A stretch of 64,000 bases of DNA from Roseobacter insulae (GTDB lineage: Bacteria; Pseudomonadota; Alphaproteobacteria; Rhodobacterales; Rhodobacteraceae). The notes below the pieces were generated by a model. The model was given only the letters and a program-made list of their open reading frames with translations. It ran no database searches and was not told the origin of the DNA. Location: positions 1-64,000 of the forward strand of contig NZ_JAHXDN010000008.1 of NCBI RefSeq assembly GCF_019375555.1, given 5' to 3'. The translations under genes and the position numbers were made by a program. Below, one piece after another: positions 23,918 to 51,551 of this stretch (the stretch's first letter is position 1; every line of letters begins with the position of its first letter).

Positions 23918-25138
23918 ATGCATCTCAAACCCAAGCTGCAGACGCGACAAACACAAAAGCTGTCAATGACCCCGTCGCTGCGTCAGGCCATCGGCCTGCT
24001 GTCGCTGAGCAATGGGGACGTGACAAGAAAGCTTTGGCGCGCCGCACGCACAAACCCCTGCATCGGCATACGCCCTCCGCATACCGACAGGGGCATCGAA
24101 AATCACGCCGCGCCGGAAAGCCTCGTTGCGCATGTCACACGTCAGATCGGCGCGAGTTTCCGGCAGGCCCGCACCCGGCGCATCGCCATGGCCCTGCTGG
24201 ATGCTCTGGAACCATGGGGCTGGCTGGGGCAACCGCTGACACAGGTCGCGCAGGTGTCCGGCTCTGAGCTCGCAGAGGTCGAAGCGGTATTGACCCGGAT
24301 GCAGGGGTTCGAACCAACCGGGATATTTGCCCGGTCGCTGGCAGAATGCCTGAGGCTGCAAGCGGCAGAGAACGGTCAGTTGGACCGGTTGATGATGCAG
24401 GTACTGTCCCATCTGGAGCTTGTGGCCAAGGGCGACTGGACACGCCTTGCCGAAGCCTGCGGCGGTACTGAGGCCGCGATTGTGGATCGGGTTGGGGCGC
24501 TGCGGGGGCTTGATCCCAAACCCGGCCTCCAGTTTGGCGCAGGCCCGGTCACGCCGCCCGGCGCTGCCGACCTGCTGGTGATGCTGCAAAACGGCATCTG
24601 GACAGTCGTTCTGAACCCCGCATCCCTGCCGGAAATCACCACGCTGCCGGGTATCGATGCACAGGCGCGTCGCGAGGCCGACCGCCTGAACACCGCTCTT
24701 GAACGTCGCAATGCGACCATCCTCGCCGTCGCAACCGAGCTCGTCAGCCGGCAGGCTGCCTATCTGGATGGTGCTGATGCCCCTGCCCCCCTGACGCAGG
24801 TAACGCTCGCGGCATCGGTTGGGCGACATCCCAGCACGGTTGGCCGGGTCATGGGGGTGCTGACCGCACAGACGCCGCGCGGGCATATGCCCTTGCGCGG
24901 GCTCATGGGGCGGTCGGTGCGGGGGACAGGCCTTGGCGTCGACGAATTGCAGCACAGGATCGCCCGGCTGATTGCGGAAGAAGATCCTGCAAACCCGCTG
25001 AGTGACGCACGGCTTGCCGGTCAGTTGTGTGCCGCCGGTATTACGATCGACAGGCGCACGGTTGCAAAATACCGCGCGTCGCAAGGCGCGCCACCGGCTG
25101 CCGCGCGCCGACGGGTGGGTCCAAAAACACCCACCTGA
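23918..25138 (+). CDS. rpoN: RNA polymerase sigma-54 factor, short paralogue
   Basis: A 406-residue sigma-54. Region I is LQTRQTQKLSMTPSLRQAIGLLSLSN (shown here only as its type: Gln/Leu-rich, residues 7-32). The acidic region II is nearly absent, which makes the protein shorter than typical RpoN (470-500). The core-binding domain follows, then the HTH region (LTQVTLAASVGRHPSTVGRVM) and the RpoN box RRTVAKYR near the C-terminus. It lies just upstream of the tail-like cluster, with a consensus -24/-12 promoter 149 bases after its stop. None of the usual housekeeping rpoN neighbours is present. It is therefore probably dedicated to the injection system. Confidence 0.88.
   Translation: MHLKPKLQTRQTQKLSMTPSLRQAIGLLSLSNGDVTRKLWRAARTNPCIGIRPPHTDRGIENHAAPESLVAHVTRQIGASFRQARTRRIAMALLDALEPWGWLGQPLTQVAQVSGSELAEVEAVLTRMQGFEPTGIFARSLAECLRLQAAENGQLDRLMMQVLSHLELVAKGDWTRLAEACGGTEAAIVDRVGALRGLDPKPGLQFGAGPVTPPGAADLLVMLQNGIWTVVLNPASLPEITTLPGIDAQARREADRLNTALERRNATILAVATELVSRQAAYLDGADAPAPLTQVTLAASVGRHPSTVGRVMGVLTAQTPRGHMPLRGLMGRSVRGTGLGVDELQHRIARLIAEEDPANPLSDARLAGQLCAAGITIDRRTVAKYRASQGAPPAAARRRVGPKTPT
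25114..25135. promoter_or_regulatory. Inverted repeat, candidate activator site upstream of sigma-54 promoter
   Basis: GGTGGGT (25114-25120) and ACCCACC (25129-25135) form a perfect 7-bp inverted repeat around CCAAAAAC, at the 3' end of the rpoN-like gene. A further ACCCACC copy stands at 25219-25225. Both lie 60-170 bases upstream of the -24/-12 promoter, the normal distance for enhancer sites of sigma-54 activators. It could also be a weak hairpin at the gene end; there is no T run. Confidence 0.4.
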
Positions 25139-25286
25139 ACCAACGCTCTAACCCGCTCGCTTCACGGGACAATTCGCATCGCGCCGCGGCCGACAGACAC
25201 GCCCGTGGGGCGCATTCCACCCACCCCGCGCGCCGCGTTCTCAGGCAAAATCGATTATTAACAAAGCCTTAACCCTTTCCACACGT

Positions 25287-25302
25287 TGGCACGAAAATTG
25301 CA
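25287..25302 (+). promoter_or_regulatory. Sigma-54 (-24/-12) promoter of the tail-like cluster
   Basis: The sequence TGGCACGAAAATTGCA matches the sigma-54 consensus TGGCACG-N4-TTGCA at every fixed position, with GG and GC exactly 10 bases apart. It stands between the sigma-54 gene and the first tail gene, reading towards the latter. Transcription should begin near 25313. Confidence 0.9.
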
Positions 25303-25342
25303 TCTACCACAAGCAGTTGCCGATCCTTCCGCGGAGGGATGG

Positions 25343-26401
25343 GTGCCACGCATGTGCAAGTGTTTTCGAGGATCCTGCAACGTTATGCCGCCACCGCTGC
25401 CTCTTGATGATGCGATAAGCGAAGTCCTGAACGTGCACCTGAGCGCGTTTGTACCCGGTGCCGTGGGGGCACTGCCCAACAACAGCGTGCAGTTGGTGTC
25501 TGTTAAAGGGCGCCGGCTGGGCCTGGGCGACCGGCGCGGCGCTGAAACCCGGTTGGGTGTGCCGGTCGCCGCCCTGCGCGGGCTGCATATCGACGGTGTC
25601 GCGCGGATCGAACTATGGGATATTTCGCCCAACGCGGTCGACAGCGGCATGGAAACGGTGCAGGCCAATGTCATGGGCGCCAGCGCCAGCCTGCGCAGCG
25701 CCGGGTTCCTTCGCCTCGCGGTGTCGGACAGTGGTCCGGCAGAACATGTGCCTTCCCTGAATGCCTGGCGCAAAGCGACCGATCTGCCGTTCCTCTACGA
25801 ATATCACGGGCGCGACAACGATGATGCGGAGAGCTTCATTGTGCGTATTCCCATCCGCTCCGATCTCGAAGAAACCGGATCACCCACAGGCACCGTGGAC
25901 ACGGTGATCGACGACATGCGCCGCTGGGACGACGATGGCGCGCCGTCACTGATCGTGAGGTCCACTGGCGGGGCGCGCAAGGTACGCGCCAAGGCAATCC
26001 TTGGCATCGGGTTTCTGCCCGGTGGCTTTACCGGCGGCGCAGTCACGCTGGAGCGTGGTGTCGCGGGGGCGCCAGGCGCACCGGTCGTGCATGGCACGCT
26101 CGATGCTTTTCTGGATGCCGTCGGCGATGGTGACGCACCGCAACTTCAGGCACAGGTCAGCTTCCCCAGCGTAGCGGCCTTTCTGACCGCGCTTGGCCCG
26201 CCCGGCGACCCGTTCGATCTGGGTGACTGGGACAGCGATGCCGTCAACGACATCTACATCCCGCATCTGAGACAGTTTCCGCGTCCGATCACGCTGCGAT
26301 CCGGGCGGGATTTTCTAGCCATTCGTCATGACGCGCCGGCCTTTGCTGCGCCTGCCGTTCTTTACCTCCGCGTGGACGCGGATCACCAGAGAGCTGGCTG
26401 A
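25343..26401 (+). CDS. First gene of the tail-like cluster, unknown function
   Basis: A protein of about 352 residues that I do not recognise. It lies directly behind the sigma-54 promoter and 39 bases before the sheath gene. The N-terminus is Cys-rich (CKCFRGSC). The rest looks like a mixed beta protein with several Asp/Gly-rich turns and no membrane helix. The start is uncertain: GTG 25343 has GGAGGG at good distance; ATG 25352 and ATG 25385 are alternatives. Codon use matches the cluster. Its place suggests a structural or terminator/cap component of the tail, but no motif proves it. Confidence 0.6.
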   Translation: MPRMCKCFRGSCNVMPPPLPLDDAISEVLNVHLSAFVPGAVGALPNNSVQLVSVKGRRLGLGDRRGAETRLGVPVAALRGLHIDGVARIELWDISPNAVDSGMETVQANVMGASASLRSAGFLRLAVSDSGPAEHVPSLNAWRKATDLPFLYEYHGRDNDDAESFIVRIPIRSDLEETGSPTGTVDTVIDDMRRWDDDGAPSLIVRSTGGARKVRAKAILGIGFLPGGFTGGAVTLERGVAGAPGAPVVHGTLDAFLDAVGDGDAPQLQAQVSFPSVAAFLTALGPPGDPFDLGDWDSDAVNDIYIPHLRQFPRPITLRSGRDFLAIRHDAPAFAAPAVLYLRVDADHQRAG

Positions 26402-26440
26402 CCCTATCGGGACAGACGCCAGCCAGACCAGGAGAATGCC

Positions 26441-28117
26441 ATGGAACAGATATTACCCGGCGTGTCGGTTGCCGTCCGCCCAGAAGGCCTGATCATCCCC
26501 GGTGTCGTGTCGATCAGCGCGATCGGAATGGTCGGCACCGCCAGCAAGGGACCGGTCAACGAACCTGTCATCATCGGCTCCACCGCGGAGGCGCGGGAGG
26601 TGTTTGGCGAGGCCGATGCCTTCGACCCGGACAACCCCGGCGACGAACTGACCCTGATCCGCGCCATCGATCTGGCCTATGACCACGGCGCGCGCGATGT
26701 GATCGCTGTTCGGGCCTCGGTGCCGGAAGGTCAACCCGGTGTGGCTGAACACGCGAGTTTCACCGTGCAGTCCGCCGGCGGCGATTGCTGCACCTTGCTG
26801 GCCAAAACCCCCGGAAACTGGGGCAATGATCTGGGTATCAACATCTCGCCGGCGGAGGAAAACGCCGTGATCGCGGATGAAACGCATAACGGTCCCGTAC
26901 CGATTTCCCTGACCCACACGCAAATCGTGGAGAGTGCGCGCAACCGCATTGCCGTCTTGGCAAGCGGATCGACCGTGGCGGTGGACCGCACGGTTGTCGT
27001 TGGTGCGGCGCCTGCTGCAGGCGAGGTGCAGGTGGACCTCGCAACCGGAGACCTCACCTTTCCTGCCGGCGAAGAACCGGGGGGCGCCGACACCGTCATC
27101 GCCACCTATGTCGTGCGGTCGGACGACGCGGTGAAAGTAACACTGCGCCACGATCTGAACGAAGAGACCTTCACCGCCGTCAACGGGCAGCATCTCGCGG
27201 ATCTGCTGGAAGATTCCGATTTTGCCGAACTGGACGGCACCGCCGGTAACCCCAACATTGGCGAGATACCCACCGCTTTTGCCACAACCACGGAATTCCA
27301 GCTTTTTGGCGGCGGATCGAACGGCGCTGCCGGTGCCAGCTACAATAACGGCTTTGAAGCGCTTGCCAACGAACCGGCCTTCATCATCGTCGCGGCCGGG
27401 CAGGACAATGGCGGCACGATTGGCGCAGACCTGACGGCGCATGTGACGTCCGCCAGTTCCGACACCAACAAGCGTGAGCGCATCGGCGTGATCGGATCAC
27501 CCTTCGAGGCTGATCTTGACGACATCCTCGGCCATACGCTGAACAGCGACCGCATCGTCTTTGTCGCACCGGGTGTCACGGTGTCCGACGTTGTGACCGG
27601 TGAGCCGGTCACGCTTTCCGGTGGGTATGCCGCGGCGGCCGTCGCTGGCATGATTTCCGGGGCGCCGATCAACCGCAGCCTGACCAACAAGGTACTGTCC
27701 GTCGCCGGGCTGGAAGAAGAGTACACCCAGGCCGAATTGCGGCGGCTGGTGCAGGCCCGTGTTCTGGCGCTGGAGAAAAAGCTGGGGTTCCGAACCGTCA
27801 AGGGGATCACCACCTCGACCAACACCGCCTGGCACCAGATCACCACGCGGCGGATCGTGGATTTCGCGGTGTTCGGCGTCCGCTCTGCGGCCAACCCGTA
27901 TATCGGCCTGCTCAATAACGAGCGGGTCCGTGCGGCGATGCAGTCGACCATCAACAGCTTCCTCGCCGAAATGGTCATCGACGAACAGCTGGTCAGCTAC
28001 GAGCTGGAGGTCACCGCCACCCGCGATGACGAAATCCGCGGCATCGCACGGGTCACCATCGTGCTGCGCCCGACGTTCAGCATCGATTTCATCAAAGTCA
28101 CGATGTTCCTCGAATAG
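26441..28117 (+). CDS. Contractile tail sheath protein
   Basis: A 558-residue sheath protein of the phage/eCIS type. The N-terminus PGVSVAVRPEGLIIPGVVSIS is the usual strand-exchange arm, followed by IGMVGTASKGPVNEPVII. A long inserted middle domain (about 120-290) explains the size. The conserved C-terminal sheath domain includes RIVFVAPGV, GGYAAAAVAGMISGAPINRSLTNK, ITTRRIVDFAVFGVRSAANPYIG and the closing strand IRGIARVTIVLRPTFSIDFIKVTM. AGGAGA precedes the ATG. The sheath contracts to push the inner tube through the target envelope. Confidence 0.92.
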   Translation: MEQILPGVSVAVRPEGLIIPGVVSISAIGMVGTASKGPVNEPVIIGSTAEAREVFGEADAFDPDNPGDELTLIRAIDLAYDHGARDVIAVRASVPEGQPGVAEHASFTVQSAGGDCCTLLAKTPGNWGNDLGINISPAEENAVIADETHNGPVPISLTHTQIVESARNRIAVLASGSTVAVDRTVVVGAAPAAGEVQVDLATGDLTFPAGEEPGGADTVIATYVVRSDDAVKVTLRHDLNEETFTAVNGQHLADLLEDSDFAELDGTAGNPNIGEIPTAFATTTEFQLFGGGSNGAAGASYNNGFEALANEPAFIIVAAGQDNGGTIGADLTAHVTSASSDTNKRERIGVIGSPFEADLDDILGHTLNSDRIVFVAPGVTVSDVVTGEPVTLSGGYAAAAVAGMISGAPINRSLTNKVLSVAGLEEEYTQAELRRLVQARVLALEKKLGFRTVKGITTSTNTAWHQITTRRIVDFAVFGVRSAANPYIGLLNNERVRAAMQSTINSFLAEMVIDEQLVSYELEVTATRDDEIRGIARVTIVLRPTFSIDFIKVTMFLE

Positions 28118-28129
28118 GGAGACGAAAAA

Positions 28130-28672
28130 ATGGCAAACACCAATGTATTCACCGGTGGCGACGCGACGCTGACGCTTGCGCCGCTCGACACGCCGCCGGG
28201 CGGCGATGCGGAATCGATCATCTCCCGCTACGAAATCGCGACAGCAGTGGGGCGCGTGACCGGCGTGCGCTTCACGGTCGACACCGATCTGCGCAGCTTT
28301 CACGAGATCGGCTTTCGCCATGTCACATCGCTGCACGAAGGAAACATCGACATCTGCGGCGAGGCGGACAGAGCCTATATCAACGGCGCGCTGCTGGGTC
28401 TTCTGATGGGGCGGAAATCCTTTCTCGACAACAATCAGCGCACCTTCCAGCCGGAATTCAACATGACCCTGCAACTGAATGACCCAGCGGTCGTCGGGCA
28501 GGCAAGGTTGACGCTGAATGGCGTGAAATTCCAAAGCTGGGCCTTTGCGCTTCCCGAAGATGACATCGTGATGGAGAAAGTGAGTTTCCGCGCCAAGAGC
28601 GTCGATATCGCCGATTTCGATGATGACAGCGGCGTGTCGGCAGGCCCGGCCTTCGTTGATCAGGAAGGATGA
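28130..28672 (+). CDS. Tail tube protein
   Basis: A 180-residue protein directly after the sheath gene (12 bases, GGGAGA site), the normal position for the inner tube subunit. The beta-rich pattern fits the Hcp/gp19 tube fold: GRVTGVRFTVDTDLRSFHEIGFRH, LHEGNIDICGEADRAYIN, FQPEFNMTLQLND and MEKVSFRAKSVDIADF. I infer tube from position and fold appearance; there is only one tube-type gene here, while many eCIS have two or three. Confidence 0.78.
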   Translation: MANTNVFTGGDATLTLAPLDTPPGGDAESIISRYEIATAVGRVTGVRFTVDTDLRSFHEIGFRHVTSLHEGNIDICGEADRAYINGALLGLLMGRKSFLDNNQRTFQPEFNMTLQLNDPAVVGQARLTLNGVKFQSWAFALPEDDIVMEKVSFRAKSVDIADFDDDSGVSAGPAFVDQEG

Positions 28673-28680
28673 GGGAAACC

Positions 28681-29148
28681 ATGACACTTTCAGGCGAAGA
28701 ACTGCTGGCTGGCGCGTCGGCGCGGCACCTGCACGACATCCCGCCCGAGCATCTTGGCACAGACGACGGCGCGGCACCGGCTCAGGTCGAACTGCGCCCG
28801 CTCACTGTGCGGGACTTGCAGGTGATCGCGCGGGCCTCGAAGGAGGATGAAAACCTGTCTGCCGCGCTGATGATCCAGCAGGCTCTGGTGGCGCCGGAGT
28901 TGTCGCTGCGCGACGTCGAACGGCTGCCAGCAGGTCTGGCCCGGCACCTTGTCGATCAGATCAACGCCCTGAGCGGCATTGATCTGCCGCAAAACGCGCT
29001 GGAGGAGATGGTGCAGGCGCCGCTGGCAAAGGCCTGTTTCGTGCTGGCACGCGAATTCGGCTGGACCCCGGAGGAGGTGAGCGGAATGACGATCGGTCAA
29101 ATCCTGCTCTATCTGGAAATGGGCACGCGCGAGGCACAGGCCGGATGA
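28681..29148 (+). CDS. Tail assembly chaperone-like protein
   Basis: A 155-residue, mostly helical acidic protein after the tube gene. VELRPLTVRDLQVIARASKEDENLSAALMIQQALV and the following helices look like tail assembly chaperones (the gpG/gp24-type proteins that coat the tape measure). The start is ATG 28681 with GAGGGA before it; ATG 28669 overlaps the tube stop and has a poorly placed ribosome site. It overlaps the next gene by 4 bases. Confidence 0.6.
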   Translation: MTLSGEELLAGASARHLHDIPPEHLGTDDGAAPAQVELRPLTVRDLQVIARASKEDENLSAALMIQQALVAPELSLRDVERLPAGLARHLVDQINALSGIDLPQNALEEMVQAPLAKACFVLAREFGWTPEEVSGMTIGQILLYLEMGTREAQAG

Positions 29149-30371
29149 CCGGGCCATTGGCATCCGCCGCACCCTCGCGGTTGCGCAAGGCGGCACAGGC
29201 GGGTGCCGGTCGCGGTGCGGCGGTGTTTCTGCGCCGACTGCGGGCGCAGACGGTGGTGTTGGAAAACTGGCAGCGCGCGGCCCGCCAGCATGACTGGTTG
29301 CACAAGGATACCAGGCTGCGGCTGGGGCCACCTATGGGCAGCGGGTTGCATCATTGGTGCAGCGCGCCGCTGGCGGAAACAGCACAGGAAGCCGCGCCAA
29401 GGCCCTTGGGTAAAGCGCCGATCAAACCTGCGACACCCGTGCCACCAAGGCGTCAACCGTCATTTCTGAAACCGTCGCCCAGTAAGGCCACTGCCGTCGC
29501 GCCCGGCGCCGGCGCTGACATCAAGACGCTGCCTGCCAAGGTTGGCGGCGGCAGGTTAAGGCTGTGGTCGAAAACAGAGGCGTCCTTTCTGGAAAAGCCT
29601 AGTGGGTCACAACCATCAGCAATTGCCCTTGCGCGGAGGCCACGACCGGGACGCAGCCCCTTGCCCGATGCCGGAATTGACTGGAAAGAACCCCTCAGGT
29701 CCAAGGCAATGCAAAGGTTATCCGCGCATGGCGTGCCACAGGACAGGCCCCGCGGCTTGTCAGATGTCTGGGAAAGGCCGGTGGCAGGTATTGCCGCGCC
29801 AATCGCTCTTCTGCGGCACCTTCTGTCGCCGCCACCCCGCGCCACCGGGCAAAACACCGCTTCACGCCCCGGGACCGCAGCACAGTTTTCCGCCCTCGGC
29901 ACGGCGCCCATTCAGCACCCCGGCGACCCGATGGCACACCCCCGTGAAAAGGTCCGGCGCAACCCGCAGTTTGCCGACACCCCACCCAACGAAAGGGTCG
30001 GTCACCCCGCACCGCAGCCATTACAGGACAGTTCGGCACAGAGGCCAGCGATCCCCCAACTGGTGGACCCGGCACCTCCGGACACGCGCGACCCCCTGCA
30101 CCGCGACACGCTGGCACCGCCGCCGCATCACACACCCGTACCCCTGCCCCCGCAGCCGGACCTCACCCCGCCGGTTGCCGCGATCATCGCGCCCGCCGAC
30201 CGGGCGGCCCTGACCCGGGCGCAGGGCGCAGTGGAAGATGAGCCACCGGAGCCCGCGCCCCAGACCACCCGCACCATGCCGCATCCGCCGCGGTTCGACC
30301 GCGCCGATCTGGGCGACGCGCTTGCCAAAATTCTGCGCGACGAGGCGCGGCGCCACGGCATAGACGTATGA
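29145..30371 (+). CDS. Proline-rich, probably disordered protein of the tail-like cluster
   Basis: A 408-residue protein of unknown function. The first 60 residues are basic and helical (RLRKAAQAGAGRGAAVFLRR), the middle is long low-complexity sequence rich in Pro, Arg, Ala and His (for example TPVPLPPQPDLTPP), and the end is a short ordered segment PRFDRADLGDALAKILRDEARRHG. It sits where a tape-measure protein is usually encoded, after the chaperone-like gene, but it has no long coiled-coil or membrane segment. It could be a tape-measure substitute, a scaffold or a cargo. Confidence 0.6.
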   Translation: MTGPLASAAPSRLRKAAQAGAGRGAAVFLRRLRAQTVVLENWQRAARQHDWLHKDTRLRLGPPMGSGLHHWCSAPLAETAQEAAPRPLGKAPIKPATPVPPRRQPSFLKPSPSKATAVAPGAGADIKTLPAKVGGGRLRLWSKTEASFLEKPSGSQPSAIALARRPRPGRSPLPDAGIDWKEPLRSKAMQRLSAHGVPQDRPRGLSDVWERPVAGIAAPIALLRHLLSPPPRATGQNTASRPGTAAQFSALGTAPIQHPGDPMAHPREKVRRNPQFADTPPNERVGHPAPQPLQDSSAQRPAIPQLVDPAPPDTRDPLHRDTLAPPPHHTPVPLPPQPDLTPPVAAIIAPADRAALTRAQGAVEDEPPEPAPQTTRTMPHPPRFDRADLGDALAKILRDEARRHGIDV

Positions 30372-30380
30372 GGAACCGAT

Positions 30381-30923
30381 ATGCGCCCCATGCTTGACGA
30401 AATAGCCCTGCCGCAGGTCCAGACGCTCAGGCTGCGTGATGCCAGGGCGCTGGCCGAGCATCGCGCACCGCAGATGCAGGGCAGCTACTTTCAGAACATG
30501 GGGCGTCACGCCACCGCGATCCTCGTGGCAGGCGTGGCCAGCGGACCGGACGCACAGCAGGTGCTTGGCACCGTGACCGAGCTGTTTGAGGCCGGCGATC
30601 CGATCCCCTTCGTCGCGGACATCGTGGCGGATGCCGAAATTGATCAGGTCATTATAGACGATTTTCGCACCCGCGAAGTATCTGGCAAGCCGGACCGCTA
30701 TGCCTACGCGCTGGTGCTTAGGGAATTTCAGGAACCGGCAGAGCCCGAGGCCATTGGCCTGCTCGATGACGACATTCTGGACGAGGCCGAAGGGCTGCTG
30801 GACGGCATCATCGACGGGCTTGATCTGATGCCCGATTTCGCCACCGGACTGGAGCGTTTCGTGGCGCCGCTCAGCGGGTTGCTGGAACGGTTGCAGCAAC
30901 TTAACGGCGGCGGCCGCACGTAA
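30381..30923 (+). CDS. gpU-like tail protein, short paralogue
   Basis: A 180-residue protein. The first 120 residues look like the P2 gpU / DNA-circularisation N-terminal domain: TAILVAGVASGPDAQQVLGTV, then LFEAGDPIPFVADI and RYAYALVLREFQEP. The rest is an acidic amphipathic helix region rich in Leu/Asp. The N-terminal 120 residues align along their length with the N-terminus of the 1356-residue protein two genes on (shared PML.EI.L.QVQ, GV.SGP.A and LREF/Y.E). GAGGA precedes the start. Role: tube completion or adaptor to the hub. It has no LysM domain. Confidence 0.68.
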   Translation: MRPMLDEIALPQVQTLRLRDARALAEHRAPQMQGSYFQNMGRHATAILVAGVASGPDAQQVLGTVTELFEAGDPIPFVADIVADAEIDQVIIDDFRTREVSGKPDRYAYALVLREFQEPAEPEAIGLLDDDILDEAEGLLDGIIDGLDLMPDFATGLERFVAPLSGLLERLQQLNGGGRT

Positions 30924-30950
30924 CCGCCACCACACAAAAGGAGAAGAAGC

Positions 30951-31367
30951 ATGGCAGACAACCTGTTTGAAGACCTCAAGGAAGTTCTGCAGGATTTCAA
31001 GGACTTCCTCGACGAAAAAGTGAGTGTGATCCAGCCGGCGATTGCCGCGTTGCGATCCATCATCCCCGATCAGATCGACAGTCTTCTGGACACGCTGATC
31101 GACTTGATGGGCAAGCTGAAAACCGAAGTGCAGAACCTCGACGTCAGTGCCATTCCCGGCCTGGCGGAAGCGGCCGAGTTTACCGGGCAGGTGAAAGGTT
31201 TCGTGGATGCCGCCAAGGCTCTGCTGCCTGACAATGCGGACGATTTCGATGCGGTGTCCGATATTGCGGATGTCGTGGGCGGGCTTCCCTCCATTGACGA
31301 AGTGAAAGGTGAGATTATCGCATTGATTGATGCGATCGTGGGCCACCTCAACTCGCTGAAAGCGTAA
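30951..31367 (+). CDS. Small all-helical acidic protein of the tail-like cluster
   Basis: A 138-residue protein that I do not recognise. It consists of amphipathic helices with Leu/Ile/Val heptads (LKEVLQDFKDFLDEK, IDSLLDTLIDLMGKLKTEVQ, IIALIDAIVGHLNSLK) and no Cys. AAGGAG precedes the ATG. The pattern resembles phasin-like or apolipoprotein-like helical bundles. It stands between the two gpU-like genes and may help assembly or loading of the larger one. Confidence 0.6.
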   Translation: MADNLFEDLKEVLQDFKDFLDEKVSVIQPAIAALRSIIPDQIDSLLDTLIDLMGKLKTEVQNLDVSAIPGLAEAAEFTGQVKGFVDAAKALLPDNADDFDAVSDIADVVGGLPSIDEVKGEIIALIDAIVGHLNSLKA

Positions 31368-31383
31368 CGGAGAGGCTCGGAAC

Positions 31384-35454: not shown

Positions 35455-35990
35455 TGAGTGACATGAGCAACCTTCCTGCCGGCGTGCAGGATTATCTGAT
35501 CTCCGAAGACGCGCTCCGGCGGGCGCAGTTGCTGCAGGACCATCCTCAACTGGCAGAAGAACTCAAAAGCCCGGAGGTGCGCGAGATCATCCTGGCATGG
35601 CTGGCAAGCGATCCGGCACGGCAGGCATCAAACGAAAGCCTGCTGGAAAACTGCATCGAGTTCCTGACCGCGGGGGCCGCGCCCGGGGAGGCGGCGGTTA
35701 TCCGGCCGTTTTCGCTGCACGGCAACCAGCATGTACGCCTGCGCAGCTACGAGTTCCTCGTCAGCCTGTATTTCCCGGATCGCAACCGCGAGGCGCTGAT
35801 GTCCGTTCTGCAGCTGATGCTGTCCGATCATAGCGAAACCGTTCGCAGGGAAGCCGCCGGATTCGTCCAGCGTGCCAACCTGTCCGGTGAAATGACGCCA
35901 TTTCTGCGGGTGTGGCGCGACCGGGCGGAGGAAGACGGGCGTGGCGCCGAGGAAAGCTTTGAACTGATCAACCGACTGTTGACGCCGTGA
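35454..35990 (+). CDS. HEAT-repeat-like helical protein of the tail-like cluster
   Basis: A 178-residue, all-helical protein starting inside the stop of the giant gene (TGATGA). Helix pairs such as GNQHVRLRSYEFLVSLYFPDR and HSETVRREAAGFVQRANL look like HEAT/ARM-type repeats. There is no signal or membrane segment. The coupling to the giant gene suggests a chaperone or loading factor for it; this is inference. Confidence 0.6.
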   Translation: MSDMSNLPAGVQDYLISEDALRRAQLLQDHPQLAEELKSPEVREIILAWLASDPARQASNESLLENCIEFLTAGAAPGEAAVIRPFSLHGNQHVRLRSYEFLVSLYFPDRNREALMSVLQLMLSDHSETVRREAAGFVQRANLSGEMTPFLRVWRDRAEEDGRGAEESFELINRLLTP

Positions 35991-36006
35991 AGGAGGCTGC
36001 AAGCAT

Positions 36007-37811: not shown

Positions 37812-37823
37812 GGAGGTGCGAAC

Positions 37824-38156: not shown

Positions 38157-38172
38157 AGACAGGAGGCACCCG

Positions 38173-45064: not shown

Positions 45065-45075
45065 GGAGAATGAAT

Positions 45076-45969
45076 ATGTTAGACGAAGAAGAACCCTTTA
45101 CCACGTTCGAACCCGGGCAGCTGATCACCGCCGAGTCGATGAATGCGATGCAGTCGAAGATGCGCGCTGAAATTGCCAAGAAGATCGCCGAGGCGCTGGC
45201 TGCCCTCACTGAAATCGACAAGGCCAAGGACAGCGACGCCCTTGAGGGGTCAAGCGCCGAGGACCTTCTGGCAAAATTTCTGGAGCAAGCCATGCAACAA
45301 TTCCCCACACACACCGGTTACCGCAAACTGTTCAAGGTGCTCGAATTCGACGAGCGCAACCTGATCGACCACCAGCTTAAGCTCTGCCCGCTGGTAGACC
45401 TCTACGAGCTGAAGAGCTTTGAGGTGATATGCGCGCATGATGACGACAAGCATCGCGAAGAAGTACGTTTCTTCCTCTATCACACCAGCGAAAAGAAACT
45501 GCGGCATGACGATGTGACGGTTGAAATCGAAGCGACGGGTGAAACACCGTTTCGCATTCCGCTCGCCGAGTTGCTGGATTACCTCGACGTCGAGTACACG
45601 GACGACTCCAGTCTGGGTGATCTGGAAACCGAACTCTGGACAGCGATGTTCGCGGCCCCGAACGACTCCTTCGATCCGGCCGATTACTGCCATTCTCCCT
45701 GGTACGAACGCTGTTGCCGCGAGGAACGGACGGTCGGCAGCCTGAAAGCCAAGGGCGACTGGGATGAACTGTGGCTGAAAATGCGCCCCTGCAAAACCGT
45801 GAACCCGCCAGCGGATCGCGACGAGGCCGAGTCCGTTCGCCTGCCACGCGGCATTCTGGTCGAGCATCATGATTTCGATCAGCTGAGCCTGACCCTGAAG
45901 GAACCGATATTCGGACCGAACGGCGATGAGGCGCGCCCCATGTGCGTCATGGTGCTGCTGAAGGTCTGA
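45076..45969 (+). CDS. Conserved-looking protein after the fibre gene, unknown function
   Basis: A 297-residue acidic soluble protein. After a helical N-terminus (ITAESMNAMQSKMRAEIAKKIAEAL) it has mixed sequence with a Cys/His patch CHSPWYERCCREER and a last strand PMCVMVLLKV. ATG 45076 was chosen since AAGGAG lies 7 bases upstream. The N-terminal line resembles short proteins next to tail-fibre genes. A fibre-assembly chaperone or baseplate adaptor is possible, but I do not recognise the family. Confidence 0.62.
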   Translation: MLDEEEPFTTFEPGQLITAESMNAMQSKMRAEIAKKIAEALAALTEIDKAKDSDALEGSSAEDLLAKFLEQAMQQFPTHTGYRKLFKVLEFDERNLIDHQLKLCPLVDLYELKSFEVICAHDDDKHREEVRFFLYHTSEKKLRHDDVTVEIEATGETPFRIPLAELLDYLDVEYTDDSSLGDLETELWTAMFAAPNDSFDPADYCHSPWYERCCREERTVGSLKAKGDWDELWLKMRPCKTVNPPADRDEAESVRLPRGILVEHHDFDQLSLTLKEPIFGPNGDEARPMCVMVLLKV

Positions 45970-46006
45970 CAGGGGCACCGGCCCGGCACGCAGAGGAGTG
46001 ACAGCG

Positions 46007-49000
46007 ATGCAAGTGGTGGACAGATTTCCGGCCAGCGGATTCCTCAACGGACCCCGCACACTTGTCCTGCGCAGCCTGCCGCCGGGCGCGCGGCTGAAAT
46101 CATTCCGGCTGCTGATTACGCCGATTGCCGACGAGAGCGGCGCTGTCGGCCCGGGGCTGGAGGCCCTCACTTTCCCGGCGGGGAGTGGCCCGCAGTCTGA
46201 TGTGGCGATCGATCCCGCGGAACCCGCCCGGCCCACTGGTGTGACGCGCACCAGCGGCACCGGCGCCCTGCCCTGGACAGAGGTGGCGTTCAATGGATTC
46301 CGGGCACTGCAAAACGTCGGTGGGATCGGGCTGGCGGGGGCCGCGTTGCAGGTGGATGTTGGGGGGCTCTTTGTCGCTGTTGACGCCAACGGCACCATTC
46401 CCCAGCAATCAGGAGATTTCCCCCTGCCCGGTGACACTGCGGATCTTCCCGGCCTGTCGGTACAGCGGATGCGTCTGGTCGCACCCGACGCGGTGCCGCC
46501 GCTGCCCTTGGTCACCGACATCACCCTGCGGGCGGTGGCGAGCAACCTCACGGTCGCCTTGGGTGAGCAACCGGCTGTCTGGGCGCGACCGGGCGATGTG
46601 ACAACGGCTGTCGAAACCACTGAACTGGTCGAGTTTGCTCAGGCTGCGCTGGCCGTCGCTCCGGTTGAACACGGCTTTGCGGTGCTGCCGGTGACCGTCA
46701 AAACCGATACCACAGCGCGCCTGGGGATCGAAATAAGGGCGGAATACGACGAAACGAGCACGAGCCTGCCTGCAGGCTTGCCCGAGATGACGCTGGATTA
46801 CTCTCACGACGGCATTGCCGACGCGGGTGACGGCCTGCTGAAAGTCAAGGTGCCCGACGGCATGGAACTTGACCCGGACAAGACACGGGTGGAGATCGCA
46901 GGCACCTTTGAAAACAGTCAGATCAGCTTCGGCGCCTTGGCCGATCGCTCCCCGCAGGGGGCGCTTGACGTACCCGCGGGGCACGCGGTGGCCACCCCGC
47001 TCGCGATGATCGAAGAAACGGTGGCCGATGCTGTAGATGTGCTGTTGTCCACGTCCGACCGGAATGCCGGGGTCGAGATCGACCTGCGCGAGGATTTCGA
47101 CGGCAAACCGGGGGACGTATCGCTTCTGGCCACCCGGGCAACCGGATCGCTTGATGTCTCACGTCATGGCACGCCCCGCTGGCTCAATGCTGCACTTGGG
47201 CAGGCCGTCACGCTGCCTGCGGCGAATACGCAGACAGGCAAACCCCGCTTTTGGATCGTCGTTCAAAGCGTCGCCGGCTCCGTCACCTGGCATCTCAACC
47301 CCGAGCGCGACGGCACCGCCGAGGCGCAGACCAGCGACAACGGCGGCCTGTCGTGGCGTCCGGCACGGGCGACGGACGTGCCCGGGGCGCTGGCACCACA
47401 GGTTCGCCTTCGCCGGGCATCACCGGTTTTCAACGTGCCCGTCCGGGCAGAGATCGACCGTGGCAGCGCGGCGGAAATCCTGGAACTGGACGCGTTCCAA
47501 CCGCTGGGCAGAGTCGAGTTCTCGCTCGATTCAGAGCGGTTTACCACTGCGGTCAACGCCGCGCTTGATCGCCGCCTGGCCGATGCCTGCCCCCGTGGTG
47601 AGCACCTGATCAATGGCGGGTTTGCCGATCGTGAAGAGGCCGAGGTTTATCGTCCCGCCGGGTGGACGGCGAGCGGCGACAGTGTGGGGCGTCGGGTGTT
47701 CGGCGTGCGCCTTGCGCCGGAGTTGGACCCCGATGACGTAACAATCCTGCCGGTGACACTGGTGCGCGTCGGCACCAACGAGGACCCGGCTGAATCGCTT
47801 TCACAGGTGTTGACCGTGTCGCCGGGATGCCCTTACCGGCTGACCTTCCGCGGTTTCGGTCTGGCACCGGGCGGCCGGATCGAGGTGATCTGGCGCAGTG
47901 CCGACTGCGGGGTTGCCGGGGTGGATGTGCTGGAGCCGCCCCCTGCGTCAGTCATTGCCGATCCGGTTGTGTTCAGCGCGGCGGTTTCCGGGGGTCCGAT
48001 CCTCGCGGCGATACCCGCAGCGACCCTCGACACGACGGCACCCGCCGGGGCGCAGCAAGCCGAAGTCAGGCTTGTGGCCAGCCCGGACGACTCGTTCTTT
48101 GTCGACGTCGTTTCTTTGACCGCGGGCACCCGGTCGCTAGCCAATCCTGACATGAGGGAGGCAGCGGCGCCCGAAGACGGCACACGTGCGATCAAGGGAT
48201 GGGAGACGGCACCGCAAGACGCCTTTGCGGACGCGGCATTTTCTTTTGGGGCCGGACTTGGCGGGGTGACCTTGTCCAACAGGGACACCCGGGGCAGAAC
48301 GCTGGTTCTGCGCCAAGGTATTACCGTCATACCCGGCACAAGGGTGGCCGCCGGTCTGGAAACCACCGCGCCAGCCGATGGCCCCGACCCTGTGTTCAGC
48401 ATTGTGTGGCATGGGTCGGAGCGCGCACCGCTGACAACAGCCGTGTCAAGGGACGGTGCCGAGATCACCCGGCTTGCCGGCACCGTTCCCGATACGGTCC
48501 GGCAGGCGGAGGTGCAGATCGCCCTTGCCCAGAACGCAACGCTGACGGTTGTGGCCGTCGCGGTGGAGGCCGCGCCACCTGCCGAGGTGCCGGTTGCCTT
48601 CCTGTCGGAAGCGCCCGGGCGCCTGACGGTGCGTGATTTCACCGTTGGCTTCCGTCCACGACCCGTGCCGCAGACCCCGGTGGCACCGGGCACGCCCTGC
48701 GCCGTAACCCCGCCGGACGCCGCCCCCGGCGATGTCTGTGAACCCGACCCCTGTTGCGGCAAATCCGGGGCTGCCGAACCGGCCACTGCCACTGCCGTTA
48801 CCACGGTCTCTGCCCTTCCGCCGACGGCGACGATTGCAAGCCTGCGCCCGGCAACCACGCCTGCACTTTCGGTCATGGGCACGTTGCCCGCGGCAAGCGC
48901 CAGCGCCCGCCTTGCGGCCGTTGCGACACGGATGTCGCTGGCGGGCACGCGCCCCCGCCGGGTGCTGCGCGTGGCCGAAACCGCAGTCACCCTGCGGGCC

Positions 49001-49198
49001 GCCCTGCCGGTTGGTGACATCAACGGGGTGGGCGAGGTGCGCACCACGCAGCTCGCAACGGTGGATATCAGAACTGTCGGTGATCTCGCCCGTATCGTAC
49101 CGGAAGACCTTGTCCGGCGTCTGGGCTATACAGACGCGCTGGCACAGGATCTCGTAGCCAAGGCCAAGGCGCTCATGGAAGATCAGACACCCTCCTGA
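46007..49198 (+). CDS. Large beta-rich tail-cluster protein with C-terminal helix-hairpin-helix-like region
   Basis: A 1063-residue protein without signal peptide. The N-terminal 900 residues are beta-rich, with jelly-roll-like segments (HLINGGFADREEAEVYRPAGWT near 540, and a second similar GTRSLANPDMREA near 715) that look like carbohydrate-binding modules. A Cys-containing linker CEPDPCCGKSG is near 920. The final 60 residues (GDINGVGEVRTTQLA, IRTVGDLARIVPEDLV) look like tandem helix-hairpin-helix units. GAGGAG precedes the ATG. It is the last gene of the rightward operon, and its stop overlaps the convergent activator gene by 16 bases. Role: baseplate decoration or fibre; uncertain. Confidence 0.65.
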   Translation: MQVVDRFPASGFLNGPRTLVLRSLPPGARLKSFRLLITPIADESGAVGPGLEALTFPAGSGPQSDVAIDPAEPARPTGVTRTSGTGALPWTEVAFNGFRALQNVGGIGLAGAALQVDVGGLFVAVDANGTIPQQSGDFPLPGDTADLPGLSVQRMRLVAPDAVPPLPLVTDITLRAVASNLTVALGEQPAVWARPGDVTTAVETTELVEFAQAALAVAPVEHGFAVLPVTVKTDTTARLGIEIRAEYDETSTSLPAGLPEMTLDYSHDGIADAGDGLLKVKVPDGMELDPDKTRVEIAGTFENSQISFGALADRSPQGALDVPAGHAVATPLAMIEETVADAVDVLLSTSDRNAGVEIDLREDFDGKPGDVSLLATRATGSLDVSRHGTPRWLNAALGQAVTLPAANTQTGKPRFWIVVQSVAGSVTWHLNPERDGTAEAQTSDNGGLSWRPARATDVPGALAPQVRLRRASPVFNVPVRAEIDRGSAAEILELDAFQPLGRVEFSLDSERFTTAVNAALDRRLADACPRGEHLINGGFADREEAEVYRPAGWTASGDSVGRRVFGVRLAPELDPDDVTILPVTLVRVGTNEDPAESLSQVLTVSPGCPYRLTFRGFGLAPGGRIEVIWRSADCGVAGVDVLEPPPASVIADPVVFSAAVSGGPILAAIPAATLDTTAPAGAQQAEVRLVASPDDSFFVDVVSLTAGTRSLANPDMREAAAPEDGTRAIKGWETAPQDAFADAAFSFGAGLGGVTLSNRDTRGRTLVLRQGITVIPGTRVAAGLETTAPADGPDPVFSIVWHGSERAPLTTAVSRDGAEITRLAGTVPDTVRQAEVQIALAQNATLTVVAVAVEAAPPAEVPVAFLSEAPGRLTVRDFTVGFRPRPVPQTPVAPGTPCAVTPPDAAPGDVCEPDPCCGKSGAAEPATATAVTTVSALPPTATIASLRPATTPALSVMGTLPAASASARLAAVATRMSLAGTRPRRVLRVAETAVTLRAALPVGDINGVGEVRTTQLATVDIRTVGDLARIVPEDLVRRLGYTDALAQDLVAKAKALMEDQTPS

Positions 49199-50583
49199 GC
49201 GGGCATGTCATCGGCATTCTCCTGAAAGGCCGAAGTGTCGATCTTGTGTTTCTTGAGCAGTTTTCCCAGCGCGCGACGTTCCTTTCCGGCATGGCGCGCA
49301 GCCCGCGTCACATTGCCCTGCGCCGCGCGCATCAATGACAACAGGTAGCCCTTCTCGAAGGTGTCGATCGCCTTGCGCTTGGCCGCACCGAATGCCTGCG
49401 GCTGCGCATCCGCACCGCAGTCCGGTCCAGCGTCCGGCGTCAGCGTGACACTCTGGCCCGTGGCGGTCACCACCGCTCTGTGAACCGTGTTTTCCAGTTC
49501 GCGCACATTTCCGGGCCAGCCATAGGTTGACAGATGTATCCGCGACTCCGGCGTCAGGGTCAGCGGGCCGGTATCGTAAGAGCCCGCGAATTTGGTGAGA
49601 AAATGTTCCGCCAGCAGCTCTGAATCGGCTCCCCGCAGGCGCAGCGGCGGCAAACTCAGCGACAGGACGTTCAACCGGTAAAGTAGATCGGAGCGGAACT
49701 CGCCGTGACGCGCCAGCAGGTGCAGGTCCTCGTTGCCCGCCGCAATCACCCGCAGATCGGCTTTCCGGCTTCGATTGCCCCCGACACGCCGGTATTCCAG
49801 GCTTTCAAGGAAGCGCAGCAGTGCCGCCTGAGCCTTGGCGCTCAGCGCCTCGACTTCATCCAGAAACAACGTGCCGGATTCAGCCTGTGCCACCAAACCG
49901 CTGCGGGCTTCGCGGGCATCGGTGAAGGCCCCGCGCGCGTGACCAAACAACTCCGCTTCGATCAGGCTGTCCGGCAGGGCGCCGCAGCAGACCGGCACGA
50001 AGGGGCCGGATTTGCGGCGTGACAATCTGTGGATGGCACGCGCTGCCAGTTCCTTGCCGGTGCCCGTTTCACCGTGGATCAGCACGGCCGCATCGCATTC
50101 GGCAAACCGCGCCAGCGTCAGCAGGCTGTCCAGAAACACCGACGAACGCCCCACCAACCCAAGGGCGCGCACCGGCGCACTACGCTTCTGGCGCAACACA
50201 TCCTGAACACTGACGTCGCCGGACGGGGCAACGCAGCTCCTCTCCAGCCGAAGCTTCAGCTCGGACCGGCCACAGGGCCATGTCACAAAATCGCGGCTGT
50301 TGCGGATCACCGGTTCAGCCCAGCGGAACGCGGTTTTTTCCAGCGCCAGCAGATGGGCCGGCTCAACCGCGCCGTTTCTCAGGCGGTGCATGGCATTGGG
50401 TGACCACCCGCTGTCCCCCAGATAGATGAGGCTGGGCTGACCATGGGCAGCCTTCGGCATCTGCGTCGGCGGGACAAGGTTCAGCCGGTAATCCAGCTCG
50501 CCCAGAACCCGAACAAGCGCGTCAAACGTGTCGCCGCTTTCCTGCGAGACCAATGTCAGGACGTGAGCCGCGTTCGAAGTCAT
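49183..50583 (-). CDS. Sigma-54-dependent transcriptional activator, receiver-less
   Basis: A 466-residue bacterial enhancer-binding protein. The N-terminal 140 residues are not a receiver with an acidic pocket and Asp site; they are of unknown type. The AAA+ domain (about 145-380) has Walker A GETGTGKE, GAFTDA where the sigma-54 contact loop is usually GAFTGA, Walker B GTLFLDEVEALS, sensor I VIAAGNEDL and arginine fingers in FRSDLLYRL. A Fis-type HTH ends the protein (AAQGNVTRAARHAGKERRALGKLLKKH). ATG 50583 has GGAGAAAGG before it. Its likely target is the sigma-54 promoter at 25287. Confidence 0.88.
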   Translation of the reverse strand: MTSNAAHVLTLVSQESGDTFDALVRVLGELDYRLNLVPPTQMPKAAHGQPSLIYLGDSGWSPNAMHRLRNGAVEPAHLLALEKTAFRWAEPVIRNSRDFVTWPCGRSELKLRLERSCVAPSGDVSVQDVLRQKRSAPVRALGLVGRSSVFLDSLLTLARFAECDAAVLIHGETGTGKELAARAIHRLSRRKSGPFVPVCCGALPDSLIEAELFGHARGAFTDAREARSGLVAQAESGTLFLDEVEALSAKAQAALLRFLESLEYRRVGGNRSRKADLRVIAAGNEDLHLLARHGEFRSDLLYRLNVLSLSLPPLRLRGADSELLAEHFLTKFAGSYDTGPLTLTPESRIHLSTYGWPGNVRELENTVHRAVVTATGQSVTLTPDAGPDCGADAQPQAFGAAKRKAIDTFEKGYLLSLMRAAQGNVTRAARHAGKERRALGKLLKKHKIDTSAFQENADDMPAQEGV

Positions 50584-50606
50584 AACTCGCCGCCTTTCTC
50601 CTGATA

Positions 50607-51551
50607 TCACACCTGTGCCACCTTGACGTCATCAGGCTTCGGGCCACTCGCACGCAGGCTCAGGATGCGTCGCGTAACGTCGAACCAGAAGCCCGCCCCC
50701 AGGCTGACCGCCAGAGCGGTGATCAGCCATCCGGCAACCGATTGAATGGCAACCGCGGGGTCGGCAAAGCGGTCTGTCAGGCTTTCCGTTTCCGTCCAGC
50801 CCAGCGGCAACTGGCCAAACTGATCCATCAGCGGCCCAAGATCACCCGCGACCTGCATCGCGGGGACCGGTGTATTTTCAGCAACCTCGACAAGCGTCTC
50901 GCGCAGCGTTGCATCGGCCCAGAGCTGATGCATGAAGCTCAGCGCATCCGCATCCACGACCACCACCAATACCGCGGCCAGGATCAGGCTGATGGCTTGC
51001 GCGCGGCGCTTGTACCATCCCGACGCACGATCCATCGACTCGTCGAACCAAAGCGACAGCCGCTGCTCCACCGAGGCGATGCGGCGCTGGATAGACCGGT
51101 CGGTGTTACCAATCTGCCCGATCATCAGGGCAAGCGCGTCTTTCAGCGGACCCTTGGGCATGTCGCGCACGATGTCCGGTGCCCGCCCCAAAAGCTCATC
51201 TTCCGAAATCGGCGCAGCTGGCCCGTTTGCATTCCGGCGCCGCAGGGTGTCGAGCAGCGCGGTCACAAACGAGTGGTTCGGCATGTAGGAAGGACCATTT
51301 CCGACCAAACCCGTCAGCCAACTGCGCGCATTGCCCCGGTAGAGCCGCTTGATCGCGGGATGGTCCAGAACGTCGTCGGCCAGTGCCTTGCCGCCGTCCT
51401 CCAGAAGGTTGCGCACGGCGCGTATCAGATTGCCTGCGCGCATACCGAAGAGACCGGCAATCATTTCCTGGATTGTCGTGACAATTAAACTCAGCGTCAG
51501 AAAAAGGAGGGCAAGCCCCAAAAACGTCTCAAGTACTACGGAACCGAACAC
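50607..51551 (-). CDS. Membrane protein of unknown function linked to the activator
   Basis: A 314-residue protein with an N-terminal hydrophobic helix (LETFLGLALLFLTLSLIVTTI), a cytoplasmic or periplasmic domain of about 150 residues, a second helix (AISLILAAVLVVVVDA near 195), and a third near the C-terminus (VAGWLITALAVSLGAGFW). It ends 23 bases before the activator start on the same strand, so the two are probably co-transcribed. It may sense the envelope and control the activator, or help export or dock the machine. I do not recognise the family. Confidence 0.68.
   Translation of the reverse strand: MFGSVVLETFLGLALLFLTLSLIVTTIQEMIAGLFGMRAGNLIRAVRNLLEDGGKALADDVLDHPAIKRLYRGNARSWLTGLVGNGPSYMPNHSFVTALLDTLRRRNANGPAAPISEDELLGRAPDIVRDMPKGPLKDALALMIGQIGNTDRSIQRRIASVEQRLSLWFDESMDRASGWYKRRAQAISLILAAVLVVVVDADALSFMHQLWADATLRETLVEVAENTPVPAMQVAGDLGPLMDQFGQLPLGWTETESLTDRFADPAVAIQSVAGWLITALAVSLGAGFWFDVTRRILSLRASGPKPDDVKVAQV

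What the first reader, a model, noticed from the sequence alone, without database searches (positions are those of the whole stretch)
23918..51551. A phage-tail-like contractile injection system with its own sigma-54 switch
Sheath, tube, hub, spike, PAAR, gp25-, J- and gpI-like genes form one rightward cluster. A shortened sigma-54 gene sits directly upstream, a consensus -24/-12 promoter precedes the first tail gene, and a receiver-less sigma-54 activator lies at the far end on the other strand. All three parts of a sigma-54 circuit bracket one machine. I do not know a described eCIS or tailocin with such a built-in sigma factor. Sequence shows the parts; the regulatory link is inference.
Basis: partly seen in the sequence, partly recalled or inferred. 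Interest (0 to 1): 0.93.

Follow-up and report, generated by a model that had tools for sequence, protein, structure and literature searches.

The report
Injection machine with private sigma-54 switch
This bacterial genome encodes a phage-tail-like injection machine flanked by the only sigma-54 factor found in the genome and by a matching activator gene, an arrangement that recurs in two other genera, so the machine is likely switched on by its own private sigma factor rather than by a shared cell-wide one.

Summary
An rpoN gene (23918-25138) precedes a rightward contractile-tail operon (25385-49198). A perfect -24/-12 site lies at 25286. A sigma-54 activator (49183-50610) and a membrane-protein gene (50607-51551) sit convergently at the far end. 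This rpoN is not a spare copy: it is the only Sigma54_DBD match in a 99.96%-complete genome. Of nine proteins with a PF00158 match there, only the linked activator keeps a GAFT-type contact loop (GAFTDA). The order rpoN, -24/-12, tail operon, activator, membrane gene recurs in Yoonia sediminilitoris and Shimia sp. R9_2, where the linked rpoN is again the only one above cut-off. The three rpoN genes form one clade (100/99) at 42-52% identity to the window's. Two inverted repeats 90 bp apart are candidate enhancers; a matrix trained on the other two species ranks them first and second in the window. Ten of 27 other rpoN neighbourhoods examined matched a different client set and none had CIS genes, so this may be a portable, client-linked sigma-54 kit whose client is an injection machine. 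Regulation is predicted, not measured. Capped literature searches listed no CIS with a built-in RpoN.

The parts
23918..25138 (+). rpoN (sigma-54), 406 aa; only Sigma54_DBD match in the genome
   Evidence: Pfam AID/CBD/DBD; sole genome match; RRTVAKYR
25114..25135 (.). candidate enhancer dyad 1, GGTGGGTCCAAAAACACCCACC, overlapping the 3' end of rpoN
   Evidence: rank 1 in the window for a matrix trained on Yoonia and Shimia sites only
25204..25225 (.). candidate enhancer dyad 2, CGTGGGGCGCATTCCACCCACC, 90 bp from dyad 1
   Evidence: rank 2 in the window; seen in the alignment of the three promoter regions
25286..25302 (+). -24/-12 promoter TTGGCACGAAAATTGCA, inferred start near 25313
   Evidence: counterpart sites in Yoonia and Shimia
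25385..26401 (+). first operon gene; N-terminal domain has a tail-terminator (cap) fold
26441..28117 (+). contractile sheath
   Evidence: Phage_sheath_1, phrog_279 E 1.8e-47
28130..28672 (+). inner tube protein (weak family matches)
   Evidence: Phage_tube_2/DUF2001 below cut-off; 90 and 94% identical in Yoonia and Shimia
28669..29148 (+). tail assembly chaperone-like
   Evidence: Phage_TAC_7 E 1.3e-5
29145..30371 (+). fast-diverging proline-rich protein, role unknown (36 and 34% identity in Yoonia and Shimia against 45-94% for the other matched operon proteins)
30381..30923 (+). DNA_circ_N / baseplate-hub-like small protein
   Evidence: weak
30951..31367 (+). small predicted coiled-coil protein
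   Evidence: weak, below cut-offs
31384..35454 (+). 1356-aa protein with OmpA and peptidoglycan-binding domains; an HEVTH zinc-protease-like motif lies in the C-terminal part beyond the Yoonia match
35451..35990 (+). small HEAT-like protein (start codon uncertain)
   Evidence: weak
36007..37014 (+). baseplate hub (gpD/VgrG-N-like)
37011..37811 (+). spike OB domain (Phage_base_V)
37824..38156 (+). PAAR-like tip protein (by position and composition only)
   Evidence: no Pfam match
38110..38643 (+). gp25-like baseplate wedge
   Evidence: phrog_975 E 7.7e-21
38640..40247 (+). baseplate J
   Evidence: Baseplate_J E 6.6e-16, phrog_6 E 1.1e-35
40247..45064 (+). large protein with a gpI-like N-terminus (my reading) and internal repeats
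   Evidence: syntenic
45058..45969 (+). conserved operon protein, unknown role
45998..49198 (+). 1066-aa terminal operon protein with a C-terminal HhH-like stretch
   Evidence: (weak)
49183..50610 (-). sigma-54 activator (bEBP) with GAFTDA loop, Fis-type HTH and an N-terminal domain found in 6 database proteins only
50607..51551 (-). membrane-protein gene overlapping the activator gene; candidate sensor or partner (untested)
   Evidence: beside the activator in Yoonia and Shimia

Best explanation
This is a phage-tail-type contractile injection operon flanked by the genome's only detected rpoN gene and by a sigma-54 activator gene, and those two proteins are predicted to drive the operon from the -24/-12 promoter at 25286-25302. 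In the proposed mechanism, RpoN-polymerase sits closed at that promoter; the activator, relieved by an unknown signal possibly passed on by the co-encoded membrane protein, binds the paired dyads at about -188 and -98 and remodels the complex through its GAFTDA loop. Because sigma-54 polymerase strictly needs an activator (stated in PMC11999139, section 21), the machine would be silent without the signal. The kit looks client-linked: two thirds of the family genomes sampled have no rpoN above cut-off, so a sigma-54-controlled operon likely had to travel with its own sigma factor. Shown: gene content, sole rpoN, promoter sequence, synteny, rpoN clade. Inferred: regulation, enhancer function, signal, particle assembly.
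For: Sole rpoN in a 99.96%-complete genome. Of nine proteins behind 11 PF00158 matches, only the linked one has a GAFT loop. Same gene order in Yoonia sediminilitoris and Shimia sp. R9_2, each with one rpoN above cut-off, the linked one. Upstream of the first gene, window, Yoonia and Shimia each beat all 200 mononucleotide shuffles; of 24 other relatives tested only L068 did (26 of the 28 loci with a first-gene match were tested, L059 and L078 begin inside it). rpoN clade of the three: 100/99, in all 200 bootstrap trees, 0 of 500 label shuffles as low, 79 sequences. Dyads rank 1 and 2 in the 64-kb window; 0 of 200 column-permuted motifs placed either of their two best sites in 25100-25286. GAFTDA invariant in the 6 family members and present in Shimia. 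No sigma-70-type site on + in 22900-26500. rpoN above cut-off in 1 of 25 genomes of the Shimia carrier's genus, the carrier, and in 4 of 56 of the Yoonia carrier's genus; 130 of 394 in the family sample.
Against: No expression data. Only three carriers with complete context are known. GAFTDA departs from GAFTGA. The Yoonia site (TTTGGCATCAAACTTGCAT) misses the stricter pattern. The dyad motif rests on three species; dyad 2 helped to define it; Shimia shows one strong dyad, not two. The dyad pattern with up to one mismatch is not enriched in the window (15 matches, 20 expected); 9 of 200 permuted motifs reach the score of dyad 1 somewhere, and the matrix scores 17.9 at an unrelated place in L068: the place, not the score, carries the argument. 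In the window's own genus 8 of 19 genomes have a full-length rpoN, so there rpoN is not rare. The promoter weights were recalled approximations. Genome-wide sites were sought with one pattern only: 110 matches with up to one mismatch against 81 for the reversed pattern, so other targets are not excluded.
Confidence: 0.83

Rival explanations
1. The rpoN is a general sigma-54 factor of this cell (nitrogen, transport, RNA repair) that lies beside the tail operon by accident, and the tail genes are only one of many targets.
For: It is the only rpoN. Four other exact -24/-12 matches exist in the genome, and near-matches are somewhat above the reversed-pattern control (110 against 81).
Against: The same rpoN clade sits in the same place in three genera. 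No other protein with a PF00158 match has a GAFT loop. The four other exact matches are inside predicted frames. None of 27 other rpoN neighbourhoods examined has CIS genes.
Confidence: 0.09
2. The activator with GAFTDA no longer works with sigma-54 and acts at ordinary promoters, as I recall for some NtrC proteins of this bacterial group; the rpoN is a passenger.
For: The loop is GAFTDA, not GAFTGA. Loop loss is seen in the genome's NtrC- and NtrX-like proteins.
Against: GAFTDA and GAYTDA are listed among natural loop variants expected to keep activity (PMC4641369 passages). The loop is present in all members seen, unlike the deleted loops. CIS-linked activators with GAYTDA and GAFTDA also occur in Paraglaciecola and a Nitrospirales bacterium, whose genomes have an rpoN elsewhere. 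A -24/-12 site is kept.
Confidence: 0.05
3. The cluster is a defective prophage tail or R-type tailocin induced by DNA damage, and the sigma-54 parts are unrelated neighbours.
For: Terminator-fold, sheath, tube, baseplate and chaperone genes are phage-like. Two weak PHROG matches carry a head-and-packaging label: phrog_22884 for the tube gene (E 0.0038) and phrog_1224, an endolysin, for 31384-35454.
Against: No portal, terminase, major capsid, holin or integrase match among the operon proteins or the ten flanking proteins scanned (other flanking frames were not scanned). Those ten are metabolic, transport, redox, cupin or signalling proteins. Close relatives are bacterial loci of many phyla. 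The sigma-54 parts are conserved with it.
Confidence: 0.03

Closest known systems
Client-specific RpoN/activator pairs of Cereibacter sphaeroides (RpoN1-NifA, RpoN2-FleQ, RpoN3-AprX; PMC11999139)
   Same: A particular RpoN serves one activator and one client set.
   Different: Four RpoN copies coexist there; the words tail, sheath and contractile do not occur in that paper's main text. Here one RpoN is the only one found and its client is an injection machine encoded beside it.
T6SS clusters under RpoN and a sigma-54 activator (Pseudomonas, PMC3804575 and PMC8855297: listing and abstract starts only; VasH-type activators recalled)
   Same: A contractile machine controlled by sigma-54.
   Different: As recalled, T6SS uses the cell's ordinary RpoN. 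Here rpoN itself is in the cluster, and the operon has no match above cut-off to T6SS membrane-complex or ClpV families.
Extracellular/cytoplasmic contractile injection systems (eCIS; lineage IId named in PMC12998442 passages)
   Same: Sheath, tube-like, hub, spike, gp25, J and cap-like genes on one operon.
   Different: No separate AAA+ ATPase gene was found in the operon. Regulators named for eCIS are GerE/LuxR, BTAD and RfaH types, and the word sigma does not occur in that paper's main text (PMC8213781 passages).
Other rpoN neighbourhoods of the same family and genera (propane-type monooxygenase, flagellar genes, transporters)
   Same: An rpoN gene beside a possible single client; in 4 of 6 monooxygenase neighbourhoods a -24/-12-like site precedes prmA.
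   Different: Different clients, different rpoN clades, and no CIS genes in any of 27.

Membership tests
RpoN (sigma-54) | activator-interacting, core-binding and DNA-binding domains | tested here: met
   all three above Pfam cut-off
RpoN (sigma-54) | RpoN box (motif recalled) | tested here: met
   RRTVAKYR in window and Yoonia, RRTIAKYR in Shimia
Bacterial enhancer-binding protein | Sigma54_activat AAA+ domain with Walker A | tested here: met
   E 2.9e-59; GETGTGKE
Bacterial enhancer-binding protein | GAFTGA contact loop | tested here: inconclusive
   GAFTDA variant; invariant in 6 of 6 members; listed among variants expected to stay active in PMC4641369; activity untested
Bacterial enhancer-binding protein | C-terminal DNA-binding HTH | tested here: met
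   HTH_8 matched in 6 of 6 members at E<=10; below cut-off in the window protein, E 0.0011
Contractile injection system (broad) | sheath, tube, spike/hub and baseplate wedge on one locus | tested here: met
   tube match weak
Contractile injection system (broad) | no portal, terminase or major capsid genes | tested here: met
   none in the operon or the ten flanking proteins scanned; other flanking frames not scanned
eCIS (Afp/PVC type; gene roles recalled) | AAA+ ATPase gene (Afp15-like) | tested here: not met
   in the operon, AAA matches only in the sigma-54 activator; rest of the genome not searched for it
eCIS (Afp/PVC type; gene roles recalled) | cap / tail terminator | tested here: met
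eCIS (Afp/PVC type; gene roles recalled) | tape measure protein | tested here: inconclusive
   no tape-measure family match; 29145-30371 and 31384-35454 are candidates only
Type VI secretion system | TssJLM membrane complex and ClpV | tested here: not met
   in the operon no match above a curated cut-off; TssL hit is the shared OmpA domain, 22 bits against 140, and VgrG-type hits of 25-50 bits are below cut-offs; rest of genome not searched
R-type tailocin | lysis cassette and SOS-type regulators | tested here: not met
   no holin or PrtN/PrtR-like match in the operon; endolysin-labelled matches to 31384-35454 cover its peptidoglycan-binding domain
Released particle (extracellular mode) | particles outside cells | not testable with these tools
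   needs electron microscopy

The most novel reading that the evidence does not exclude
A one-sigma, one-activator, one-operon regulon: in these bacteria the whole sigma-54 machinery of the cell exists to run a single contractile injection machine and moves between genomes with it as a self-sufficient control kit, with two phased enhancer sites and a private sensor pair.
Probability: 0.52. Interest if true: 0.86.

Novelty: new variant of a known kind. Interest (0 to 1): 0.74.

Why it matters
Sigma-54 is usually thought of as a global factor with many clients. Here it seems reduced to a single client encoded beside it, which offers a minimal natural sigma-54 circuit to study and a direct handle on when a contractile injection system is made, a question that a review calls unclear for clusters without conserved regulators (PMC10598620 passages). 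It also suggests a rule that can be tested across this bacterial family: operons that depend on sigma-54 carry their own rpoN because a shared one is missing.

Tried and rejected
Main rpoN elsewhere: searched for and not found. Plasmid origin: no plasmid record matched the sheath; rpoN relatives on plasmids are all below 60% identity, 226 records. Phage origin of rpoN: 13 phage records match, all below 60% identity. A receiver domain in the activator: no Pfam match at E<=10. The AlphaFold model of the activator was poor (mean pLDDT 49) and was not used; a receiver-like order of strands and helices in its N-terminus is only a hint. A gammaproteobacterial origin of the rpoN is not favoured by the tree, where the three sit among copies of the window's family. 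Sheath and J against solved structures gave a few phage-tail or tailocin-type hits of modest score, the tube gave none and the first gene none of use, so the CIS lineage was not assigned. The membrane-protein family was found in none of the 70 loci and in 2 of the 20 longer stretches, those of Yoonia and Shimia; the flanks held are 10 kb or less, so absence elsewhere is not shown. Foldseek gave no match at E<=0.001 for the first gene; the terminator reading rests on the VIA alignment. No -24/-12 site of the strict pattern precedes the membrane/activator gene pair on the minus strand. The script that places the four other exact -24/-12 matches inside frames also places the window's own site inside a frame, through a TTG start at 25286; the ATG at 25385 is preferred because it lines up with the Yoonia start.
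Full report

Is it the cell's sigma-54? Sigma54_DBD was searched for in the whole genome: one match, this gene. PF00158 gave 11 matches, which are nine proteins. Four that I label NtrX-like (L003), DctD-like (L005), NtrC-like (L006/L007) and a further response regulator (L008/L009) have no contact loop; an RtcR-like one (L004) has RSYLGA in its place; L010 and L011 are ClpA/B-like; L012 shows no ATP-binding frame. Only the linked activator has a GAFT loop, GAFTDA. The pattern YTGGCACGN4TTGC has five exact matches in the genome; the other four lie inside predicted frames. With up to one mismatch there are 110 matches against 81 for the reversed pattern, so absence of further targets is not proven.

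Is it conserved? A sheath search in 394 genomes of the family gave 8 matches, of which only the window's own covers the whole protein. The next, G255, matches in two pieces, shows no relative of the first gene in the 3.8 kb held, and has no rpoN above cut-off. A scan of one genome per species gave 70 loci with related sheaths, from many phyla. Within the DNA held for these, rpoN relatives appear in 2 of 70 loci, Yoonia sediminilitoris and Shimia sp. R9_2, and activator relatives in 2 of 70, Paraglaciecola and a Nitrospirales bacterium; many loci are short. With longer stretches fetched, Yoonia and Shimia show the full order rpoN, operon, activator, membrane gene. In both, the linked rpoN is the only one above cut-off. 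In the Shimia carrier's genus 1 of 25 genomes has rpoN above cut-off, the carrier; in the Yoonia carrier's genus 4 of 56. Of 80 genomes of these two genera tested for the sheath, the Yoonia carrier matched at full length and two others weakly (G425 E 4e-20, G489 E 5e-5; the Shimia carrier was left out there, known). In the family sample 130 of 394 have rpoN above cut-off. In the window's own genus 10 of 19 pass the cut-off, but two of these are partial matches, leaving 8 full-length; apart from G266 (no match) the other genomes of that genus were not searched for the sheath.

Promoter and enhancers. A rough sigma-54 matrix was run on 500 bases upstream of the first gene in the window and 26 relatives (two further loci with a first-gene match start inside it and were left out). 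The window (22.2), Shimia (19.5) and Yoonia (17.7) exceeded all 200 mononucleotide shuffles each; of the other 24, only L068 (17.1), from a genome with its own rpoN, did so too; Paraglaciecola was marginal (p 0.035). Aligning the three promoter regions showed, besides the -24/-12, a shared GGGNCNNNTNNNACCC block. With up to one mismatch this pattern is not enriched in the window (15 matches, 20 expected). A symmetric matrix made from two Yoonia sites and one Shimia site ranked 25114 and 25204 first and second in the 64-kb window. With 200 column-permuted motifs neither of the two best sites ever fell in 25100-25286, although 9 of 200 reached an equal score somewhere. The same matrix reaches 17.9 at an unrelated place in L068, so score alone proves nothing. 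The sites are 90 bp apart (91 in Yoonia), close to a whole number of helical turns. Dyad 2 was seen in the alignment that suggested the motif, so only dyad 1 is an independent find; Shimia has one strong site.

Descent. In a tree of 79 RpoN proteins the three CIS-linked ones form one group, 100/99, present in all 200 bootstrap trees, although only 42-52% identical to the window copy. They nest among copies of the same family, nearest to two (L227, L232) that sit beside peptide-transporter-like genes (the latter read from sequence by eye). The simplest reading is that the sigma factor was recruited once and has stayed with the machine. The tree tool flags unusual letter make-up in many rows.

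A wider pattern. I fetched 27 other rpoN neighbourhoods (7 from the own genus, 1 from the Yoonia carrier's genus, 19 from the family; chosen by me, not a random sample). None has CIS genes, 6 match propane-type monooxygenase genes, 1 flagellar genes and 3 a shared gene set without Pfam matches; the remaining 17 matched none of the client sets I tried; 2 have a GAFT-loop activator nearby. The unknown set was taken from one of these same loci, so its count is partly circular. Annotated plasmids show rpoN beside flagellar genes (Octadecabacter arcticus), beside an activator and TRAP transporter genes (Salipiger abyssi), and beside monooxygenase genes with an activator (Ponticoccus alexandrii). 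RpoN in this group therefore at least sometimes looks like a portable part that sits with its client.

Literature. Searches of the open library for contractile injection with sigma-54, sigma54 or rpoN, eCIS with Rhodobacter/Roseobacter, and tailocin with sigma factor, sigma54 or rpoN listed no paper whose title or abstract start describes a CIS with a built-in RpoN. Three of these lists are capped (30 of 140, 20 of 218 and 10 of 703 papers shown), and listed papers that join sigma-54 and contractile systems are on T6SS or on unrelated subjects as far as listings show. Regulators named for eCIS are GerE/LuxR, BTAD and RfaH types (PMC8213781, passages); 'sigma' does not occur in the main text of two further CIS papers looked into (PMC10598620 and PMC12210884, passages). 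Client-specific RpoN pairs in C. sphaeroides are described in PMC11999139 (abstract, passages and sections 21, 23 and 24). GAFTDA as a natural loop variant is in PMC4641369 (passages). Most subscription papers are not in the library, so priority cannot be claimed.

Limits. No function was measured. The operon lacks a separate AAA+ ATPase, so membership in the classical eCIS group is not claimed; 'contractile injection system' is used in the broad sense. The PAAR and gpI labels rest on position and reading of sequence only.

Noticed in passing
L210-L212 and L218 (own-genus genomes G508, G506, G503): An rpoN gene sits at the end of a shared run of genes; 7 of 7 proteins scanned from that run in L210 and L211 have no Pfam match at E<=0.01, and a phytochrome-type kinase lies on the other side: possibly another client-linked sigma-54 system.
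   Followed up: partly
L213-L216, L224: rpoN beside propane-type monooxygenase genes; a -24/-12-like site (TGGCACGGAACTTGCA or TGGCACGGCGATTGCA) precedes prmA in L213, L215, L216 and L224, not in L214.
   Followed up: partly
window 31384-35454: OmpA/peptidoglycan-binding protein whose C-terminal part carries an HEVTH motif; the best Yoonia match ends at residue 933: a possible exchangeable enzymatic tip or cargo.
   Followed up: no
window 29145-30371: Proline-rich operon protein, 36 and 34% identical in Yoonia and Shimia; in a gammaproteobacterial relative (L061/L193) only its last 24 residues match, at 67%.
   Followed up: no
L064 and L115: Paraglaciecola and a Nitrospirales bacterium carry an activator with GAYTDA/GAFTDA upstream of their sheath gene while their rpoN lies elsewhere in the genome.
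   Followed up: partly
L004 (G000:C1:1146634-1147125): RtcR-like activator (my label, no family scan) with RSYLGA where the sigma-54 contact loop should be, as if it had outlived a lost housekeeping rpoN.
   Followed up: partly
window 45998-49198: Terminal operon protein ends in a stretch weakly similar to DNA polymerase IV and helicase helix-hairpin-helix tails (below cut-offs), odd for a tail protein.
   Followed up: no
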